IMG/VR virus record: IMGVR_UViG_3300046787_000408
Span: 124,001-188,000 of that record
From: a virus
Direction: 5' to 3' (one strand)
DNA length: 64,000 nucleotides
Both the position numbers and the translations under genes were made by a program. The notes under the pieces are model-generated. The model searched no databases, was not told the origin of the DNA, and worked only from the letters and a program-made list of their open reading frames with translations. Positions 27,571 through 55,542 of the stretch are shown here, in pieces (position 1 is the stretch's first letter; the number at the start of each line of letters is the position of its first letter).

Positions 27571-27795
27571 ATGGAAAAATTACACGGTAGATCAGTATTG
27601 GTACAGGATGGCAACGTAGATCGTGCCTTGCGCAAGTTCAAGAAAAAGATAGCTGCTTCGGGGCTGTTGAATGACCTGCGTGATCGAGAGCACTATGTTA
27701 AGCCTACCACGGCTCGCAAACTCAAAGCAAGTGCTGCCAAGAGCCGCTGGCGCAAGAAAATGCGTGAACAAGAACTGCCCAAAAAACAGTTTTAA
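27571..27795 (+). CDS. rpsU: Ribosomal protein bS21 homologue
   Basis: 74 residues, very basic. ALRKFKKKIAASGLLNDLR and REHYVKPTTARKLKASAAK align with E. coli bS21 (ALRRFKRSCEKAGVL and EFYEKPTTERKRAKAS). bS21 sits by the 3' end of 16S rRNA near the anti-Shine-Dalgarno and is needed for initiation on many mRNAs. Phage copies are known and are thought to replace the host protein. It lies just downstream of clpX with AAAGGATT upstream and ends TAATG with the next gene. Confidence 0.93.
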   Translation: MEKLHGRSVLVQDGNVDRALRKFKKKIAASGLLNDLRDREHYVKPTTARKLKASAAKSRWRKKMREQELPKKQF

Positions 27796-28031
27796 TGTAT
27801 ATTGAGTTTAGGTACAAACCTTCAAATATTCTCACAGCCGCAATCAACCATGAAATGCATGCATGGTCAGATCGCTACAGTATTCCTTACTTTACCAAAA
27901 CAGTCAAGTATGGCAAAAGATTCACGTTTGATGATGATGCACACTACAGTTTCTTTGCCATGACTTGGAATCCCACAATGTCTTTGCCCGAATACCACTT
28001 GATTGAACCAATGAAAATTGACAGAAAATGA
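27795..28031 (+). CDS. Small protein, divergent L-R/K-W family member
   Basis: 78 residues. RFTFDDDAHYSFFAMTWNP matches the C-terminal pattern F-x-F-x-(D/E)-x-D-A-x2-F-x-L-(R/K)-W of the small proteins at 46475-48943, but with 17 residues beyond the W. Translationally coupled to rpsU. Function unknown. Confidence 0.68.
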   Translation: MYIEFRYKPSNILTAAINHEMHAWSDRYSIPYFTKTVKYGKRFTFDDDAHYSFFAMTWNPTMSLPEYHLIEPMKIDRK

Positions 28032-38179: not shown

Positions 38180-38358
38180 CTGAATCTAAATTAGATGGAC
38201 GCTCCTCTGTTGAGGTGGAGCTGGACCGTGAAGAATGGTATCAGCTCATGATGCTAGCACATGAACGTGATATCACCTTGAATCAACTAGTGGAACAAAT
38301 CTTGCGTGACTTTATCCAGGAGCATCACAATGGCACGTTGCCTGCACCTACCGTTTAA
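38176..38358 (+). CDS. Ribbon-helix-helix-like DNA-binding protein
   Basis: 60 residues. SVEVELDREEWYQLMMLAHE then DITLNQLVEQILRDFI is the strand-helix-helix pattern of RHH repressors (ParD/CopG type). Probably a small transcriptional regulator. CAGGAG is upstream of the ATG. Confidence 0.72.
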   Translation: MTESKLDGRSSVEVELDREEWYQLMMLAHERDITLNQLVEQILRDFIQEHHNGTLPAPTV

Positions 38359-38569
38359 GCAAAATAATCCACGCTCGGTACGTGGTGCAGTCAAACGGGG
38401 ATGGCATGTGGTTGAGGTCGACTTGCGTAAACGTGATGTCAGCTGGATGGCCTTGTGCTTGTGGGCCGAACGTGGCCTTGGTGGGTATTGGGTTGCTAGT
38501 CATTGGCTCAAACAGTTTGCATTTGAGTCCGGAGCAGACGCAGTGGCATTCAAACTAAAGTGGGCATGA
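38330..38569 (+). CDS. Small protein, L-R/K-W family member
   Basis: 79 residues from ATG 38330 with CAGGAG upstream, inside the end of the RHH gene. The C-terminus QFAFESGADAVAFKLKWA matches the family motif in the array at 46475-48943. The middle carries MALCLWAERGLGG. Function unknown. Confidence 0.68.
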   Translation: MARCLHLPFKQNNPRSVRGAVKRGWHVVEVDLRKRDVSWMALCLWAERGLGGYWVASHWLKQFAFESGADAVAFKLKWA

Positions 38570-45896: not shown

Positions 45897-46099
45897 AACT
45901 GGTAATCAACCATTTATATTCTGAAAATGCAGACGGCCGCATCAAGTCTGTGCGTGGTGGACGCGATCTGCAAAAGGCTCGCACACTCGAGCGTCAAGGG
46001 TTTGCTCGTGTAAAACTAGTGAGCAACACATTTGCTGGCTACGGTGGTAGCCGTGATGTTGGTTACATTCTCAACAAATACGAAGTGACATTTCTATGA
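45893..46099 (+). CDS. Small hypothetical protein
   Basis: 68 residues, basic, Gly/Arg-rich (SVRGGRDLQKARTLERQGF). Coupled by four-base overlaps at both ends. Function unknown. Confidence 0.68.
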   Translation: MKLVINHLYSENADGRIKSVRGGRDLQKARTLERQGFARVKLVSNTFAGYGGSRDVGYILNKYEVTFL

Positions 46100-46458
46100 A
46101 ATGGTTTGCTGAAACAACTGACTACAAAGACTCTGTGCCCAACGGTATCTACTTGCTGGATGACAGCAAGACCAAGATGTATGCATTCAAGCCCCGCGGC
46201 ACAGACGACATCAAAACGTTCAAAAACTTTATCCGCATTGACACCCGTGGTCGCAAGTTTGTTGTGAACCCGGTGCAGTTCGAAACCAAGGTCAAAGAAC
46301 CTGCACCCGAAGGTCGCTCATGGACAGTGAAAGGTAGCAAAGGCGATGAATACAAAATCACAGAGCACAGTGGAAATCTATCATGCACATGTTCCGGTTT
46401 CCGATTCCGTGGCGACTGTAAGCACGTCAAAGATCCCAGTATTCGTCAAGCGGTTTGA
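46096..46458 (+). CDS. SWIM-type zinc-finger protein
   Basis: 120 residues. The C-terminal half has CTCSGFRFRGDCKHV, the C-x-C-x(n)-C-x-H signature of SWIM domains, which bind nucleic acids or proteins. The N-terminal part contains repeated Phe/Lys strands (YAFKPRGTDDIKTFKNFI). Common among phages; role unknown. It precedes the L-R/K-W array. Confidence 0.8.
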   Translation: MKWFAETTDYKDSVPNGIYLLDDSKTKMYAFKPRGTDDIKTFKNFIRIDTRGRKFVVNPVQFETKVKEPAPEGRSWTVKGSKGDEYKITEHSGNLSCTCSGFRFRGDCKHVKDPSIRQAV

Positions 46459-46474
46459 TGTCAACAGTGTAGAC

Positions 46475-46630
46475 ATGTTCCGGGATGGGCACTGGGCTGA
46501 AATGATTGAATGGTGTGAGAACAATCTCTATCACGGCGGCCACTACGAGCCCAACTGGCATGCACAGTATCCCAGCTTTTACTTTTGGGACGAAAAGGAA
46601 TATTCACTGTTCCTGTTGAGGTGGTCATGA
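46475..46630 (+). CDS. Array protein 1 (L-R-W small-protein family)
   Basis: 51 residues from ATG 46475. Contains MIEWCENNL and the terminal FYFWDEKEYSLFLLRWS. In-frame sequence upstream (PVFVKRFDVN) looks like the first strand of the family, so translation may begin earlier at a GTG (46409) inside the SWIM gene. The last codons TTG-AGG-TGG-TCA-TGA also form the ribosome-binding site of the next gene. Function unknown. Confidence 0.62.
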   Translation: MFRDGHWAEMIEWCENNLYHGGHYEPNWHAQYPSFYFWDEKEYSLFLLRWS

Positions 46631-46839
46631 CAGCAAGATACAGTCGCAGCCGAGATCTCCTCCATCGTGTGACAGTGCCGCATTCGGGCGGTTGGGTGTG
46701 GGGCAAGGATCAAAGGTTTGTGTGGTGCGAGCAAAACTGTCAAGACAATTACAGGGGTGCCATGTTTCGTCGGGATCAAACTGTGTGGCATTTTAAATCC
46801 CAACAGGATGCTGTGTTGTTTGCGCTGAAGTGGGGTTGA
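46627..46839 (+). CDS. Array protein 2 (L-R/K-W family)
   Basis: 70 residues: RFVWCEQNCQDNY then WHFKSQQDAVLFALKWG. ATGA overlap with gene 1. Its end uses AAG rather than AGG in the motif, and the next gene starts with GTG two bases after the stop. Confidence 0.7.
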   Translation: MTARYSRSRDLLHRVTVPHSGGWVWGKDQRFVWCEQNCQDNYRGAMFRRDQTVWHFKSQQDAVLFALKWG

Positions 46840-46841
46840 TC

Positions 46842-47087
46842 GTGAAGTTAAATGTAACCAAATTCCGCAGTGTTGATTATTACATCGTTGAAATAGACGA
46901 AGACCATCAGTCTGGCGATACATGGTATGAACGCAGTTTTCCAGATGTTGATTCCTGGTGCGAGCACACATTTGGCGAACAAGACTTGTGGGGAGAAACT
47001 CCTGTCACAGGTTGGAAGCGTATGCGTAATCAATATTTCTTTACAGAAGAAGGCAAACGCGATTGGTTTGTTATGAGGTGGTCATGA
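46842..47087 (+). CDS. Array protein 3 (L-R/K-W family), GTG start
   Basis: 81 residues: YYIVEIDED first strand, VDSWCEHTFGEQDLW helix, and YFFTEEGKRDWFVMRWS end. GTG at 46842 is preferred; another GTG at 46830 lies inside gene 2. Confidence 0.68.
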   Translation: MKLNVTKFRSVDYYIVEIDEDHQSGDTWYERSFPDVDSWCEHTFGEQDLWGETPVTGWKRMRNQYFFTEEGKRDWFVMRWS

Positions 47088-47314
47088 CAGACAACCGCTT
47101 GCATAATGTACCAGTGCGATTGAAAACAAGAAACTTGATATGGAATACAGAAGCCCGACTTATCGAACTCAACGAATTACGAGCATGGTTAGACGAAATT
47201 ACAGAGTGGCAACCGGACATGTATGAACTAAAGTTTCACAGTTCCGGACGTCAATGTGTTGCATGGTTTGCTGATGAACAGCATGCCGTGCTTTGTGCTT
47301 TGAGGTGGACATGA
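47084..47314 (+). CDS. Array protein 4 (L-R/K-W family)
   Basis: 76 residues: VRLKTRNLIWN, a helix without the W-C pair (LRAWLDEITEW), and WFADEQHAVLCALRWT. Overlaps both neighbours by four bases. Confidence 0.7.
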   Translation: MTDNRLHNVPVRLKTRNLIWNTEARLIELNELRAWLDEITEWQPDMYELKFHSSGRQCVAWFADEQHAVLCALRWT

Positions 47315-47541
47315 GAGTAAATATTGAACCTTATTGGAAAAAGCTGGCCAATTGGTATTGGGAAAATGCTGGCGGCTACGAAGGTGTTGGCATGAGTATC
47401 TGGGACATGCTTGAACGTGATTACAGTGCTCGAAAAGTTTACCACGGTGAGCGTGGTGGCAAACTTGGCCTAAAGAAACAAATGATTGTTGAGTTCCCTA
47501 GCGAGCAAATGTATACCTTGTTTGCATTGAGGTGGTCATGA
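47311..47541 (+). CDS. Array protein 5 (L-R/K-W family)
   Basis: 76 residues; the N-terminus is divergent (YWKKLANWYWENAGG) but the end IVEFPSEQMYTLFALRWS is typical. Confidence 0.7.
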   Translation: MRVNIEPYWKKLANWYWENAGGYEGVGMSIWDMLERDYSARKVYHGERGGKLGLKKQMIVEFPSEQMYTLFALRWS

Positions 47542-47855
47542 TCACAAGCATTTGGAGACACGAAGATGACGTTTGCCCCAGAGTCAGCGGGCATTACCTG
47601 GCCTATAAATTGCCATCCCTGGGTGATGACGAAGAGGGCTATGGATTGTATTACTGGGACAACTATTATACAGAATGGCGAGAGACCCAGGCTCCGCACT
47701 CTCACTCTATCCGAGTCAGCATCTGGACTCCTTGCCCCGACCATGATCCGGGTACCCATATTTCACGACAACCAGTGCAGGCAGAAATTGAAGCCTGGCG
47801 CAATGTGTGCAATGCAATTGACCAATACAACTTGATCACAAAGTTAACACAATGA
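47538..47855 (+). CDS. Hypothetical protein inside the array
   Basis: 105 residues, the one array member lacking the L-R/K-W end. GHYLAYKLPSLGDDEEGYG and RETQAPHSHSIRVSIWTPCPD suggest a small beta domain of the kind seen in phage DUF551-like proteins. Coupled by ATGA overlaps on both sides. Function unknown. Confidence 0.68.
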   Translation: MITSIWRHEDDVCPRVSGHYLAYKLPSLGDDEEGYGLYYWDNYYTEWRETQAPHSHSIRVSIWTPCPDHDPGTHISRQPVQAEIEAWRNVCNAIDQYNLITKLTQ

Positions 47856-48280
47856 ACATTATCAAAGATGTAACTGAAGGCATAGAACCTTTCCCGTTCC
47901 TTTCGTACCAACAAGCACTCTGGGACCGACTGAATCAAGGTGGATTCAAACAGGGTCAAATATCTTTGTATGCTTCGGGTCGGCGGACTGGCAAGAGTCT
48001 CTATCAGAAAATGGTGCTCAACAAATTGTATGGTACTAACCTTTGCAAAGAAATTGTATTACCCATGAAGCCAGAACCCAAGTACAAGTTCAGTCGTGCC
48101 AAGTGGTATGAAGCAAAACTACCCGGTGACGGACAGGCAGTATTTGCTTGGTGTACTGAACAATTTGGTCCCGAGCCATACTACCCCGATGCTTGGTCAC
48201 GCTGGTACTTTAACGTGAATAGAACATTTAGATTCCGTGATGCCAAAGACTACGAATGGTTCCTGTTGAGGTGGGCATGA
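47852..48280 (+). CDS. Array protein 7: P-loop-like segment fused to L-R-W domain
   Basis: 142 residues. The first 60 residues end in ISLYASGRRTGKSLYQKM, a near P-loop (R-R-T-G-K-S; it lacks the first Gly of the exact Walker A), as at the N-terminus of DnaB/RecA-like phage ATPases. The second half is the array domain: RAKWYEAKL, VFAWCTEQFGP and FRFRDAKDYEWFLLRWA. No Walker B is visible, so ATPase activity is unlikely. A fusion or remnant. Confidence 0.7.
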   Translation: MNIIKDVTEGIEPFPFLSYQQALWDRLNQGGFKQGQISLYASGRRTGKSLYQKMVLNKLYGTNLCKEIVLPMKPEPKYKFSRAKWYEAKLPGDGQAVFAWCTEQFGPEPYYPDAWSRWYFNVNRTFRFRDAKDYEWFLLRWA

Positions 48281-48477
48281 CAGTAACACTACCCTATGAT
48301 CCTGATTGGAAAGCTTTGGCATGGGCTAAAGAATATTGTTCAAGTTATATCACCAACAAGGCCAGTAATACCACAAGACTAAAGCCGGTGTCTGGTGGTT
48401 GGGTTAATGATTCTAGCATTGTTTATTATTTTAGTGATGAACAAGATGCTGTAATGTTTGCATTAAGGTGGTTATGA
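48277..48477 (+). CDS. Array protein 8 (L-R/K-W family)
   Basis: 66 residues: LAWAKEYCSSYITN in place of W-C, then VYYFSDEQDAVMFALRWL. ATGA overlap. Confidence 0.7.
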   Translation: MTVTLPYDPDWKALAWAKEYCSSYITNKASNTTRLKPVSGGWVNDSSIVYYFSDEQDAVMFALRWL

Positions 48478-48713
48478 CCGAAACTCAGCAACAATACAGT
48501 CATTTGGATTATGAAGTCATGCTTCAGAAGGACCAGTGTCGTAAAGTCATGCGATGGTGCGAAGAACAACACGGTCCACGATGGGAAGCTATAGGCAATA
48601 GATCTGGTGTATGGACGGTATTTTGGGCAGGCAGAGGACACACTGATCAGTATAGATTCTGTTTTGCACATGAAAAAGATATGATGATGTTTGTATTAAG
48701 GTGGTCAAAATGA
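48474..48713 (+). CDS. Array protein 9 (L-R/K-W family)
   Basis: 79 residues: DYEVMLQKDQ, VMRWCEEQHGPRW, and FCFAHEKDMMMFVLRWSK. The extra Lys codon moves the next start by three bases. Confidence 0.7.
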   Translation: MTETQQQYSHLDYEVMLQKDQCRKVMRWCEEQHGPRWEAIGNRSGVWTVFWAGRGHTDQYRFCFAHEKDMMMFVLRWSK

Positions 48714-48943
48714 ATTCTAAACAACGACGAGCAGATCGCAAAGAGTGGCGCTATGAGGTCACCATCAACGATTCACAATCCTTTGTGAATTATGACGCTA
48801 TGTTTGATTGGTGTGTTGCCAACTACGGCAACACTCGCGGTATCAGTCCCAACGGTTGGCGTGAAAAACATGGGCATTTTGGCACTTGTTGGCAGTTCAA
48901 CGATTCACGTAAGGCCATGGCATTTGCACTAAAGTGGAAATGA
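48710..48943 (+). CDS. Array protein 10 (L-R/K-W family)
   Basis: 77 residues: basic N-terminus (SKQRRADRKEWRYEV), MFDWCVANYGNTRG, and WQFNDSRKAMAFALKWK. Last gene of the array; uses AAG in the motif and has no coupled gene downstream. Confidence 0.7.
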   Translation: MNSKQRRADRKEWRYEVTINDSQSFVNYDAMFDWCVANYGNTRGISPNGWREKHGHFGTCWQFNDSRKAMAFALKWK

Positions 48944-48959: not shown

Positions 48960-49631
48960 ATGAAATTTAACTCTCAAGTTATCCCTGACTTTTTAAGTGA
49001 ACAAGAAATTGCCTTGATTGAACAAGTGGTCGAAGCCAATCGAACAGAGTCTGACACTTACCGCGACATCAATCCAGTCTCAGGCCACAGTGCTGTGACA
49101 CACAGCATTCACCTAAACCATCCGTCTTATCGTGCTGTGGCTAACATTTTGGTACCCCGGTTTCAGCAACAGTTTGGTCCGGATATTAGTCTAGACAATG
49201 CACACATTTTGGATGCCTATGTTCCTTATGGTATCCACACTGATGTCATGAGTGCTGGATTTGATCCCAATGGCACCAAAGATGCTGCTTGGACCTTTAT
49301 CATTCCCTTGGACAATTATGATTCTAGTACCTTGGTATTTTCACAGCAACACGATACCATCAAGACCCTAGATCGCTGGATCGCTGAAACTGGGGCAGTA
49401 CCACATGGCATTGATGATGATTTGCATCAACAGTATTTGACACACGTGGATCGATTGGATTTACGGTACTTGGATGTGGAAGATATTTTTCCTTGGCGCA
49501 AGGGCAGTTTGTTTGCTGCATCTAGGCGAAAGTTTCACACCAGCGATAATTTCCCAGCCAAAGGAGTCAAATGCAAACGAGCTATTGTTATTTGGTCAAC
49601 TGTACCAAAGCAATATAATCAAAACACTTGA
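48960..49631 (+). CDS. 2OG-Fe(II) oxygenase-like protein
   Basis: 223 residues. Iron ligands H93-x-D95 (YGIHTDV) and distal H193 (KFHTSD), with R207 in CKRAIVIW for 2-oxoglutarate, match the jelly-roll 2OG oxygenase pattern. WTFIIPLDNYDSSTLVF is a typical core strand pair. Substrate unknown. Third such protein in the window and the best supported. Confidence 0.75.
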   Translation: MKFNSQVIPDFLSEQEIALIEQVVEANRTESDTYRDINPVSGHSAVTHSIHLNHPSYRAVANILVPRFQQQFGPDISLDNAHILDAYVPYGIHTDVMSAGFDPNGTKDAAWTFIIPLDNYDSSTLVFSQQHDTIKTLDRWIAETGAVPHGIDDDLHQQYLTHVDRLDLRYLDVEDIFPWRKGSLFAASRRKFHTSDNFPAKGVKCKRAIVIWSTVPKQYNQNT

Positions 49632-49713: not shown

Positions 49714-49983
49714 ATGCGTTTTAATCCAGAAACCAAAACATTCAAACTGTTTACCGCTCTTCGCACAGGCGAAGCCATCACTCCCGCAGCCGCTGCCAAG
49801 CGTTTCGGTATCAAGAACATGAGCGCTGAAGTCAGCCGTGTTCGTCAAGGAGGTTTCGCAGTGTATGCAAACACTCGCGTGGCCGGCAATGGTGTCAAGG
49901 TCACCGAGTACCAAATGGGTAAGCCAAGCCGCAAGTTGATTGCTGCCGGCTACAAGGCCATGGCATTGGGCTTGGTTGACTGA
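49714..49983 (+). CDS. Winged-helix/HTH DNA-binding protein
   Basis: 89 residues. TLRTG-type helix then GEAITPAAAAKRFGIKNMSAEVSRVRQGG is a helix-turn-helix with a basic recognition helix, followed by a wing-like VYANTRVAGNGVKVTEYQMG. Probably a small transcription regulator. Strong expression signals and its own terminator. Confidence 0.8.
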   Translation: MRFNPETKTFKLFTALRTGEAITPAAAAKRFGIKNMSAEVSRVRQGGFAVYANTRVAGNGVKVTEYQMGKPSRKLIAAGYKAMALGLVD

Positions 49984-53947: not shown

Positions 53948-55048
53948 ATGAGCTATCTATTTACAAGTGAAAGCGTGTCAGAAGGACACCCAGATAAAAT
54001 TGCCGATGCAATTTCAGATGCAATTCTTGACTTGGTCATGGCCAAGCAAGATCCAGCATTGCGATGTGCATGCGAGACTTTGGTCACAACCAACCGTGTG
54101 ATTATTGCTGGTGAGTACAAAGGTGTACTGCATCCTGCTGAAGTTGAAAGTGCTGTACGCAAAGTGATCAAAAACGTGGGCTATGAACAGTCAGGCTTTG
54201 ACTGGCGCACTGTTGAAATCACCAACTTGTTGCACGGACAAAGTGCTGATATTGCCTTGGGCACTGATAACTTTGGTGCAGGCGATCAAGGCTTGATGTT
54301 TGGATATGCTTGCAACGAAACTGACACTTACATGCCCAGTGCCATTTACTGGAGTCATCGTATTGTAGAGCAATTGACACAAGCCCGCAAAGACGGCGTT
54401 CTAACATTTTTGGGCCCTGATGCAAAAAGTCAAGTAACCTTTGAATACAATGACGACGGTTCACCCAAACGCATTGCCAAGGTGGTATGTAGCACACAAC
54501 ACTCAGAAGAAACCAGTATTGAAACTGTGCGTAATGTAGTAGGTGCATTTATCAAAAGTGTTTTGCCCGGAAAGTATGTAGATGATCAAACAGAATTCTT
54601 TATCAACCCTACTGGTCGATTTGTTATTGGCGGTCCCGATGGTGATACTGGGCTTACTGGCCGTAAGATTATTGTTGATACCTATGGTGGCTATAGCCCT
54701 CATGGTGGGGGAGCCTTCAGTGGCAAAGATCCTACTAAGGTTGATCGAAGCGCTGCCTACATGATGCGCTACATTGCCAAGAACATTGTGGCTAGTGGTA
54801 AAGCACCTTGGGCTACTTGTCAAATCAGCTATGCAATTGGACTTGCACAACCCATGAGTTTTTATGTTGAGTGTGAAGACCTAGCACTAGCACGTGAACT
54901 GACTGAGTTGATTCCCACCTTGGTTGATTTGACCCCTGCAGGTATTATCAAGCGTTTTGACCTGTTCCGTCCAATCTACAGTGGCACCACAAACTATGGT
55001 CACTTTGGCCGGGCTGACTTGCCTTGGGAACGACTGGACTTGTTCTAA
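53948..55048 (+). CDS. metK: S-adenosylmethionine synthetase
   Basis: 366 residues. Motifs SEGHPDKIADAISDAILD, GAGDQGLMFGYA, GPDGDTGLTGRKIIVDTYGG and GGGAFSGKDPTKVDRSAAY mark ATP and methionine binding. Makes SAM, the substrate of the radical SAM enzymes and methyltransferases in the window. AGAAGGAAA upstream. Confidence 0.96.
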   Translation: MSYLFTSESVSEGHPDKIADAISDAILDLVMAKQDPALRCACETLVTTNRVIIAGEYKGVLHPAEVESAVRKVIKNVGYEQSGFDWRTVEITNLLHGQSADIALGTDNFGAGDQGLMFGYACNETDTYMPSAIYWSHRIVEQLTQARKDGVLTFLGPDAKSQVTFEYNDDGSPKRIAKVVCSTQHSEETSIETVRNVVGAFIKSVLPGKYVDDQTEFFINPTGRFVIGGPDGDTGLTGRKIIVDTYGGYSPHGGGAFSGKDPTKVDRSAAYMMRYIAKNIVASGKAPWATCQISYAIGLAQPMSFYVECEDLALARELTELIPTLVDLTPAGIIKRFDLFRPIYSGTTNYGHFGRADLPWERLDLF

Positions 55049-55068
55049 CCCAACAAGTTGAAAACACT

Positions 55069-55302
55069 GTGTTGACTATAAACCGAGTGTTACTTGAGCA
55101 TATCACACCAACTGAAGCTATAGAGTTCAAGCTTCAGTTGGTGCGTGATGGCCTGATCCTGGATCAAGATTTTTGCTGGGCATACCACCAAGCATATTAT
55201 GATAATTTTTCTAGTGATGCTGTGATCCCCAGGCATGCTACGTTTGATTTTAAAGACGGTGCCACAGCAACATTTTATCAGCTCAAATGGATCAAAACAT
55301 AA
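55069..55302 (+). CDS. Small protein, L-R/K-W-like family member, GTG start
   Basis: 77 residues from GTG 55069. HATFDFKDGATATFYQLKWIKT matches the family end. A perfect 14-bp inverted repeat lies within its first codons (55106-55143). Confidence 0.6.
   Translation: MLTINRVLLEHITPTEAIEFKLQLVRDGLILDQDFCWAYHQAYYDNFSSDAVIPRHATFDFKDGATATFYQLKWIKT
55106..55143. repeat. Perfect 14-bp inverted repeat
   Basis: CACCAACTGAAGCT, ten-base loop, AGCTTCAGTTGGTG, 58 bases after the metK stop and inside the next coding region. No T-run. Could be an RNA processing or attenuation hairpin. Confidence 0.7.
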
Positions 55303-55311
55303 CTAACAATA

Positions 55312-55542
55312 ATGCTGGCCACTGCACTCCCGGATCGTGAAAAAAACAGCTTTGCTCACAGCAAAGAAATTACCAAACCTTTTGGCAGTTTAGACAACAT
55401 AATTTGCTGGTGCAAAACTGAACTCTTAGATGAATGGCGTTGGGAACTGATTGAAGTTAGCACAGATCAACGACCCGGACGATACGTGTTTTATTTTGAT
55501 AGCGAACGAGATCTGTTTGCTTTTGTATTACATTGGTCATGA
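55312..55542 (+). CDS. Small protein, L-R/K-W family member
   Basis: 76 residues: NIICWCKTELLD and YVFYFDSERDLFAFVLHWS. Clear family member away from the array, with H in place of R/K. Confidence 0.68.
   Translation: MLATALPDREKNSFAHSKEITKPFGSLDNIICWCKTELLDEWRWELIEVSTDQRPGRYVFYFDSERDLFAFVLHWS

What the first reader, a model, noticed from the sequence alone, without database searches (positions are those of the whole stretch)
46475..48943. Tandem array of ten tiny genes, nine sharing W-C and L-R/K-W motifs
Nine of ten consecutive overlapping genes end in F-x(1-3)-F...(D/E)...F-x-L-(R/K)-W plus 0-2 residues, and most carry a helix with W-C-x(3-4)-(F/Y/H)-G. Sequences between the motifs are very different, which suggests repeated duplication with fast divergence, as in anti-host or anti-defence protein sets. 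A common small alpha-beta fold is likely. No function is known to me for this family.
Basis: partly seen in the sequence, partly recalled or inferred. Interest (0 to 1): 0.78.

Follow-up and report, generated by a model that had tools for sequence, protein, structure and literature searches.

The report
Phage gene array with built-in ribosome sites
A giant T4-like phage carries a row of tiny, related genes of one small protein fold, in which the last conserved amino acids of each protein are also the ribosome-binding site of the next gene, and relatives gain and lose whole genes at exactly that joint; the same uncatalogued family recurs, by the hundreds, in other uncultured phages.

Summary
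Observation confirmed and larger than reported. Nine of ten overlapping genes at 46346-48943 belong to one protein family. A profile built only from other phages finds all nine (E 3e-17 to 2e-6), plus strays at 38.3 and 55.3 kb. The phage is a T4-superfamily jumbo phage (300-kb record with gp23). A relative has more than 30 copies, nearly all within about 10 kb. Over 1,300 members were found in 216 IMG/VR loci. No member tested matches Pfam, PHROGs or NCBIfam convincingly; weak relatives occur in cultured phage Atu_ph07. Two AlphaFold models of different paralogues agree on a small beta-alpha-beta-beta-alpha fold.

The motif Arg is AGG in 153/197 overlapping members, 8/44 non-overlapping ones, and 91/1181 internal Arg codons. 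The residues persist where no gene follows, so this is a protein motif also recruited as a ribosome site. Between close relatives, arrays differ by whole genes with breakpoints at this motif (19/25; null mean 2.3).

Likely role (inferred): a shuffled set of small host-binding proteins. Orthologues are under purifying selection (median dN/dS 0.17).

The parts
46346..46630 (+). array gene 1 (family member, ...LFLLRWS); start uncertain (46346 ATG or 46370 GTG), overlaps the SWIM-domain gene in another frame
   Evidence: foreign-profile E 1.6e-15; orthologues L017 and L023 67-73% identical
46627..46839 (+). array gene 2 (family member, ...LFALKWG)
   Evidence: E 1.2e-15; AlphaFold beta-alpha-beta-beta-alpha; orthologues 77-88%
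46836..47087 (+). array gene 3 (family member, ...WFVMRWS); start TTG 46836 or GTG 46842
   Evidence: E 9.8e-10; orthologue in L242, 45%
47084..47314 (+). array gene 4 (family member, ...LCALRWT)
   Evidence: E 3.5e-8; orthologue L023 11433-11663, 39%
47311..47541 (+). array gene 5 (family member, ...LFALRWS)
   Evidence: E 1.9e-6; orthologue in L126, 76%
47538..47855 (+). array gene 6, passenger without the motif; conserved in many relatives (up to 80% identity)
   Evidence: adjacent to gene 7 in the window and L010, separated from it by 4 family genes in L016
47852..48280 (+). array gene 7 (...WFLLRWA): N-terminal extension resembling the P-loop region of the phage's own helicase-like ATPase, fused to the family domain
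   Evidence: E 3.4e-17; AlphaFold domain residues 80-142 pLDDT about 83-96; N-terminus matches G000:113205, 44% over 34 aa, E 9e-5
48277..48477 (+). array gene 8 (family member, ...MFALRWL)
   Evidence: E 6.1e-10; relatives in 18 loci
48474..48713 (+). array gene 9 (family member, ...MFVLRWSK)
   Evidence: E 3.9e-11; relatives in 26 loci
48710..48943 (+). array gene 10 (family member, ...AFALKWK), end of array
   Evidence: E 2.6e-10; orthologue in L154, 67%
46616..46630 (+). example of the dual-coding joint TTGAGGTGGTCATGA: L-R-W-S-stop of gene 1 = Shine-Dalgarno GAGGTG + ATG of gene 2
   Evidence: anti-SD duplex about -8.5 kcal/mol
38306..38569 (+). stray family member 8 kb upstream (...AFKLKWA)
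   Evidence: E 1.7e-5; its relative in L184 lies near orthologues of genes 2 and 5
55024..55302 (+). stray family member (...FYQLKWIKT)
   Evidence: foreign-profile E 0.0098; L023 17492-17719 46%
55312..55542 (+). stray family member (...AFVLHWS)
   Evidence: E 1.8e-6; orthologue L023 18559-18795, 64%
27795..28031 (+). possible weak family member (motif internal, FAMTW)
   Evidence: foreign-profile E 0.0013

Best explanation
This is a modular array of paralogous accessory genes in a T4-superfamily jumbo phage. SHOWN: the proteins share ancestry, and two paralogues are predicted to share one small beta-alpha-beta-beta-alpha domain. The family's conserved C-terminal L-[RK]-W codons were recruited as the Shine-Dalgarno of the following gene, whose ATG overlaps the stop (TTG AGG TGG NNA TGA). 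Each gene is therefore a self-contained cassette that begins at an ATG and ends with the ribosome site and start overlap for whatever gene comes next. Arrays in related phages differ by gain or loss of whole genes with breakpoints at this joint, and orthologues occur in different orders. INFERRED: the shared joint sequence (often 9-43 nt) lets recombination add, delete or swap genes while keeping frame and translational coupling, which would explain why the family forms long arrays. INFERRED, less sure: the domain is a scaffold for binding varied host or defence proteins, because only core-type positions are conserved, no catalytic-looking residues recur, and content differs from phage to phage. 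The array would then be a shuffled repertoire of small host-takeover or anti-defence proteins.
For: Homology: (foreign-only profile). Fold. Codon recruitment: motif Arg codon AGG in 37/41 overlapping against 1/7 non-overlapping members. In the larger set it is 153/197 overlapping, 8/44 non-overlapping (p 2e-13) and 91/1181 internal Arg (p 2e-96); pattern-found loci were left out of this count, and members were chosen with a profile cut off before the motif. Anti-SD pairing has median -8.2 kcal/mol against -3.7 expected with synonymous Arg codons. Protein-level motif kept without overlap: 13/15, 62/93. Unit turnover: 19 of 25 indels between loci with at least 85% identical flanks fall within 11 nt of a family stop; null mean 2.3, maximum 8 in 2000 trials. 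Removing one duplicate contig and one repeated event leaves 18 of 23. L016 has four family genes between the orthologues of genes 6 and 7, which touch in the window. Gene order differs between phages. Coding genes under purifying selection.
Against: Whole-gene indels at gene ends are also what selection for intact genes would leave, and a shared end motif then creates the apparent overlap by itself. So 'recombination joint' is not separated from 'tolerated boundary'. No experiment or target links the family to host takeover or defence; orthologues show no positive selection. Some members use K (AAA/AAG) or lack the motif, so the joint is not universal. RBSs inside the upstream gene are common in compact phage genomes. 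The second AlphaFold model is of moderate confidence.
Confidence: 0.6

Rival explanations
1. The L-R-W ends are only ribosome-binding sites: a strong GAGGTG before an ATGA overlap forces these residues, so unrelated small genes converge on the same C-terminus.
For: The Arg codon tracks overlap with a following gene.
Against: Motif residues persist where no start overlaps, with the codon drifting to CGN, AGA or AAA. Homology extends over the whole domain: a profile cut off before the motif still finds the members. Two paralogues give the same fold.
Confidence: 0.05
2. Selfish or neutral expansion: because every copy brings its own joint, copies accumulate by recombination during T4-type replication, and most are only mildly useful; no defence role.
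For: Self-contained cassette layout, high turnover, differing gene sets.
Against: Orthologues are kept under purifying selection (median dN/dS 0.17, none above 1), so the proteins matter once acquired.
Confidence: 0.22
3. The domain is an RNA- or DNA-binding module (KH-, RRM- or YebC-like arrangement) used in regulation, for example of phage mRNAs.
For: The weak PDB look-alikes include KH, RRM and YebC-type domains.
Against: All Z values are under 6, and unrelated folds (phosphoglucomutase, secretin, ACT) score the same. No conserved basic surface motif was seen.
Confidence: 0.15
4. Virion-associated or internal-head proteins injected with DNA, diversified like T4 internal proteins.
For: T4-superfamily phages carry small, variable injected proteins (general knowledge).
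Against: No structural genes were identified next to the array and no targeting signature was seen; virion content was not tested.
Confidence: 0.08

Closest known systems
Start-Associated Sequences (SAS) of Cluster K mycobacteriophages (PMC3203893)
   Same: A repeated short sequence containing the Shine-Dalgarno lies a few bases before the starts of many small non-structural phage genes and can include the upstream stop codon.
   Different: In SAS the genes are not one protein family and the repeat is not described as a conserved protein motif. Here the repeat is the C-terminal codons of a homologous family.
Lineage-specific expansions in jumbo phages, e.g. about 35 zinc-ribbon copies in Bacillus phage G (PMC7824862)
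   Same: Dozens of copies of one small domain in a jumbo phage.
   Different: Different domain. No dual-coding joint or whole-gene turnover at a joint was described in the passages read.
Uncharacterised proteins of Agrobacterium phage Atu_ph07 (AUZ95034, AUZ95037, AUZ95014, AUZ95237)
   Same: Weak profile matches (E 2e-5 to 2e-4 per genome); some keep an F-x-L-R-Y-like end. A 102-aa Atu_ph07 protein matches the fold (Foldseek prob 0.98, E 0.036).
   Different: Dispersed, with longer tails; no tandem array and no LRW/ATGA joint at the ends read.
Anti-CRISPR and early host-takeover gene clusters of phages (general knowledge)
   Same: Runs of tiny, variable, co-directional genes of unknown fold or family.
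   Different: Those clusters typically mix unrelated proteins; here one fold is repeated. No inhibitory activity is shown.

Membership tests
The array family itself (beta-alpha-beta-beta-alpha, C-terminal F-x-L-[RK]-W) | Significant match to a profile that contains no sequence of this phage | tested here: met
   All nine array genes, E 3e-17 to 1.9e-6
The array family itself (beta-alpha-beta-beta-alpha, C-terminal F-x-L-[RK]-W) | Common predicted fold in divergent paralogues | tested here: met
   Genes 7 and 2 show the same order of elements; pLDDT 83-96 and about 65-79. Only two members were predicted; gene 2's alignment lacked the gene-7 orthologues
Known Pfam / PHROGs / NCBIfam family | Curated or significant profile match | tested here: not met
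   10 window proteins plus 41 diverse members: no shared family; only isolated weak hits, the best Pfam ones 0.0015-0.002 to NCBP3 for gene 8, below cut-off
T4-superfamily jumbo phage | gp23-type major capsid protein, genome over 200 kb | tested here: met
   PF07068 E 6.4e-98 in the 299,983-base record
Anti-defence / host-takeover proteins | Demonstrated inhibition of a host or defence target | not testable with these tools
   No assay; PADLOC gave only two isolated weak hits, and it lists defence, not anti-defence
KH / RRM / secretin-N-type ring-building domain | Structural match clearly above unrelated folds | tested here: inconclusive
   Best Z 4.6 and 5.7, mixed folds tied
SAS-like repeated ribosome-binding site | Conserved SD-bearing repeat a few nt upstream of start codons | tested here: met
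   TTGAGGTGGNNATGA joints; 153/197 AGG. Works like SAS, but the sequence is unrelated and also codes for protein, so this is likeness and not membership

The most novel reading that the evidence does not exclude
The L-[RK]-W/GAGGTG/ATGA joint is an evolved three-way element (protein core, ribosome site, recombination joint) that makes these arrays an integron-like but recombinase-free cassette system, with which jumbo phages assemble and swap repertoires of small anti-host or anti-defence proteins.
Probability: 0.3. Interest if true: 0.9.

Novelty: new variant of a known kind. Interest (0 to 1): 0.74.

Why it matters
A family with over 1,300 members among the loci fetched here, essentially absent from PHROGs, Pfam and NCBIfam, accounts for long stretches of hypothetical genes in uncultured large phages. 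It gives a testable explanation of how phages build and reshuffle long operons of tiny accessory genes without losing translation, and it supplies a large ready set of candidate host-interacting proteins with one scaffold. The joint sequence itself is a simple search handle for finding such arrays.

Tried and rejected
Direct alignment-based scan of IMG/VR with the 11-row alignment failed (no conserved stretch). Megablast and tblastn of the region and of single members against 50,697 phage records gave nothing significant (the E. coli and Campylobacter phage hits at E about 1 to ATPase or polynucleotide-kinase genes are taken as chance). PHROGs, Pfam, NCBIfam and PADLOC scans gave no shared family. 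The sequence profile against PDB chains gave nothing convincing. PDB structural second look: no clear relative. Prokaryote genome scan with the most conserved subfamily: no relative. The idea that LRW is only an RBS was tested and rejected. Positive selection within orthologues was tested and not seen. Literature searches found no description of such an array; the library lacks most subscription papers.

Full report
1. The observation. ORF listing and translation show ten consecutive + strand genes from about 46346 to 48943, nearly all joined by ATGA overlaps. Nine end in F/C-x-[LM]-[RK]-W plus 1-2 residues. The strict pattern F-x-[LM]-[RK]-W-x(0,2)-end occurs in only nine of 1163 window ORFs, all of them family members. 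A profile built from 49 members of other phages, none from this genome, finds all nine array genes at E 3e-17 to 1.9e-6, and also 38291-38569 and 55303-55542. The W-C motif is less general than stated: W-C in 6 of 9, the full W-C-x3-[FYH]-G in 4 of 9.

2. Where it lives. The window is part of a 299,983-base IMG/VR virus record with a T4-type gp23 (E 6e-98) and NrdA: a T4-superfamily jumbo phage. The record holds 13-14 members.

3. How widespread. Scans of IMG/VR gave related loci whose six-frame ORFs contain the same family in tandem. A 374-kb record has at least 32 matches, nearly all within about 10 kb. Searches with three conserved subfamilies and one DNA pattern of the joint brought the set to 221 loci, 216 of which hold 1337 members at 18 bits or more. 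At E<1e-8 the 1164 members above 22 bits fall into 150 linked groups, 89 of them singletons. No tested member has a convincing Pfam, PHROGs or NCBIfam match. The cultured jumbo phage Atu_ph07 has five weak profile matches and a structural one, so the family is probably older than the arrays. Most other good structural matches are proteins of uncultured phages.

4. Fold. AlphaFold of gene 7 with 62 family rows gives a C-terminal domain (residues 80-142, pLDDT 83-96) of strand-helix-strand-strand-helix; the final helix runs through the LRW motif. Gene 2, predicted from an alignment without the gene-7 orthologues, gives the same order of elements at lower confidence (about 65-79 outside the first ten residues). 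PDB comparisons give no clear relative (Z up to 4.6 and 5.7, many unrelated folds tied). Nearly invariant positions are W, F, F, L, W, which look like core positions rather than an active site (inference).

5. The motif is also the next gene's ribosome site. The codons of L-R-W-x-stop read TTG AGG TGG NNA TGA: GAGGTG is complementary to the 16S 3' end and lies a few bases before the ATG that overlaps the stop. Among members found by protein search and selected with a profile cut off before the motif, the motif Arg codon is AGG in 153 of 197 when the stop overlaps the next start, 8 of 44 when it does not (p 2e-13), and 91 of 1181 internal Arg codons of the same genes (p 2e-96). In the window's large genes AGG is 12 of 359 Arg codons. 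Predicted pairing with the anti-SD is -8.2 kcal/mol (median) against -3.7 expected for synonymous codons. Where no gene overlaps, the residues usually remain (13 of 15; 62 of 93) but the codon drifts. So the motif is first a protein motif, and was recruited as the RBS.

6. Turnover in whole units. Between loci whose flanks are at least 85% identical, 25 insertion/deletion events were found; 19 have their breakpoint within 11 nt of a family stop, against a mean of 2.3 (maximum 8 in 2000) when the same intervals are placed at random in the same arrays. One contig was counted twice (L066/L133) and one event appears in two near-identical contigs (L150/L172); removing these leaves 18 of 23. The shared sequence at a junction is, for example, TTTATGTTGAGGTGGTCATGA. 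In L016 four family genes sit between the orthologues of genes 6 and 7, which touch in the window. Orthologues of the window's genes occur in other phages in other orders. A caveat: viable indels must respect gene ends, so this does not by itself prove that the joint promotes recombination.

7. Selection. Pairwise dN/dS is 0.17 (median, 192 comparisons) for family genes and 0.10 (509) for other genes, with none above 1. These are real, maintained proteins, somewhat less constrained than neighbours; there is no sign of positive selection within orthologues.

8. Mechanism. Shown: homologous proteins, a common predicted fold in two paralogues, the dual-coding joint, and whole-gene differences at the joint. 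Inferred: the joint makes each gene a self-contained cassette that can be gained or lost without breaking the operon. Inferred with less certainty: the proteins are small binders against varied host or defence targets, because only core-type positions are conserved and content varies from phage to phage. Rivals are neutral expansion, nucleic-acid binding and injected virion proteins.

9. Compared with the known. The closest working analogue is the SAS repeats of Cluster K mycobacteriophages, which carry an SD before many small genes but are not the conserved end of one protein family. Jumbo-phage expansions of single domains are known. The combination seen here was not found in the papers searched, which are a partial library.

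Noticed in passing
46096-46458 and 46346-46630: A SWIM zinc-finger-like gene (Pfam E 0.004, below cut-off) is overlapped in another frame by array gene 1 for about 110 nt; the SWIM gene is 87-88% identical in two relatives and gene 1 keeps the same overlap there.
   Followed up: partly
47852-48070; G000:113205-113309: The N-terminal part of array gene 7 resembles the P-loop region of the phage's own helicase-like ATPase (44% over 34 aa), as if a fragment had been fused to the family domain; the P-loop is degraded in some relatives (L017 QQTGRS).
   Followed up: partly
L022 (reverse strand read) 3161 and 6641; similar AAATGG cases: A second joint type: in CGATGG or AAGATGG the R-W codons themselves contain the ATG of the next gene.
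   Followed up: no
47538-47855: The motif-less passenger gene 6 is conserved (30-80% identity) in many relatives, often directly before the gene-7 orthologue, and may be an anchor of the array.
   Followed up: partly
48960-49631: The gene after the array has no Pfam match but by eye looks like a 2-oxoglutarate/Fe(II) oxygenase (GIHTDV...).
   Followed up: no
49714-49983: Winged helix-turn-helix protein (Pfam HTH_39, E 2e-5).
   Followed up: no
Atu_ph07 (MF403008) 198223-198555, 199522-199830, 182838-183185, near 347400: Unannotated distant relatives of the family in a cultured jumbo phage; a tractable system for testing function.
   Followed up: partly
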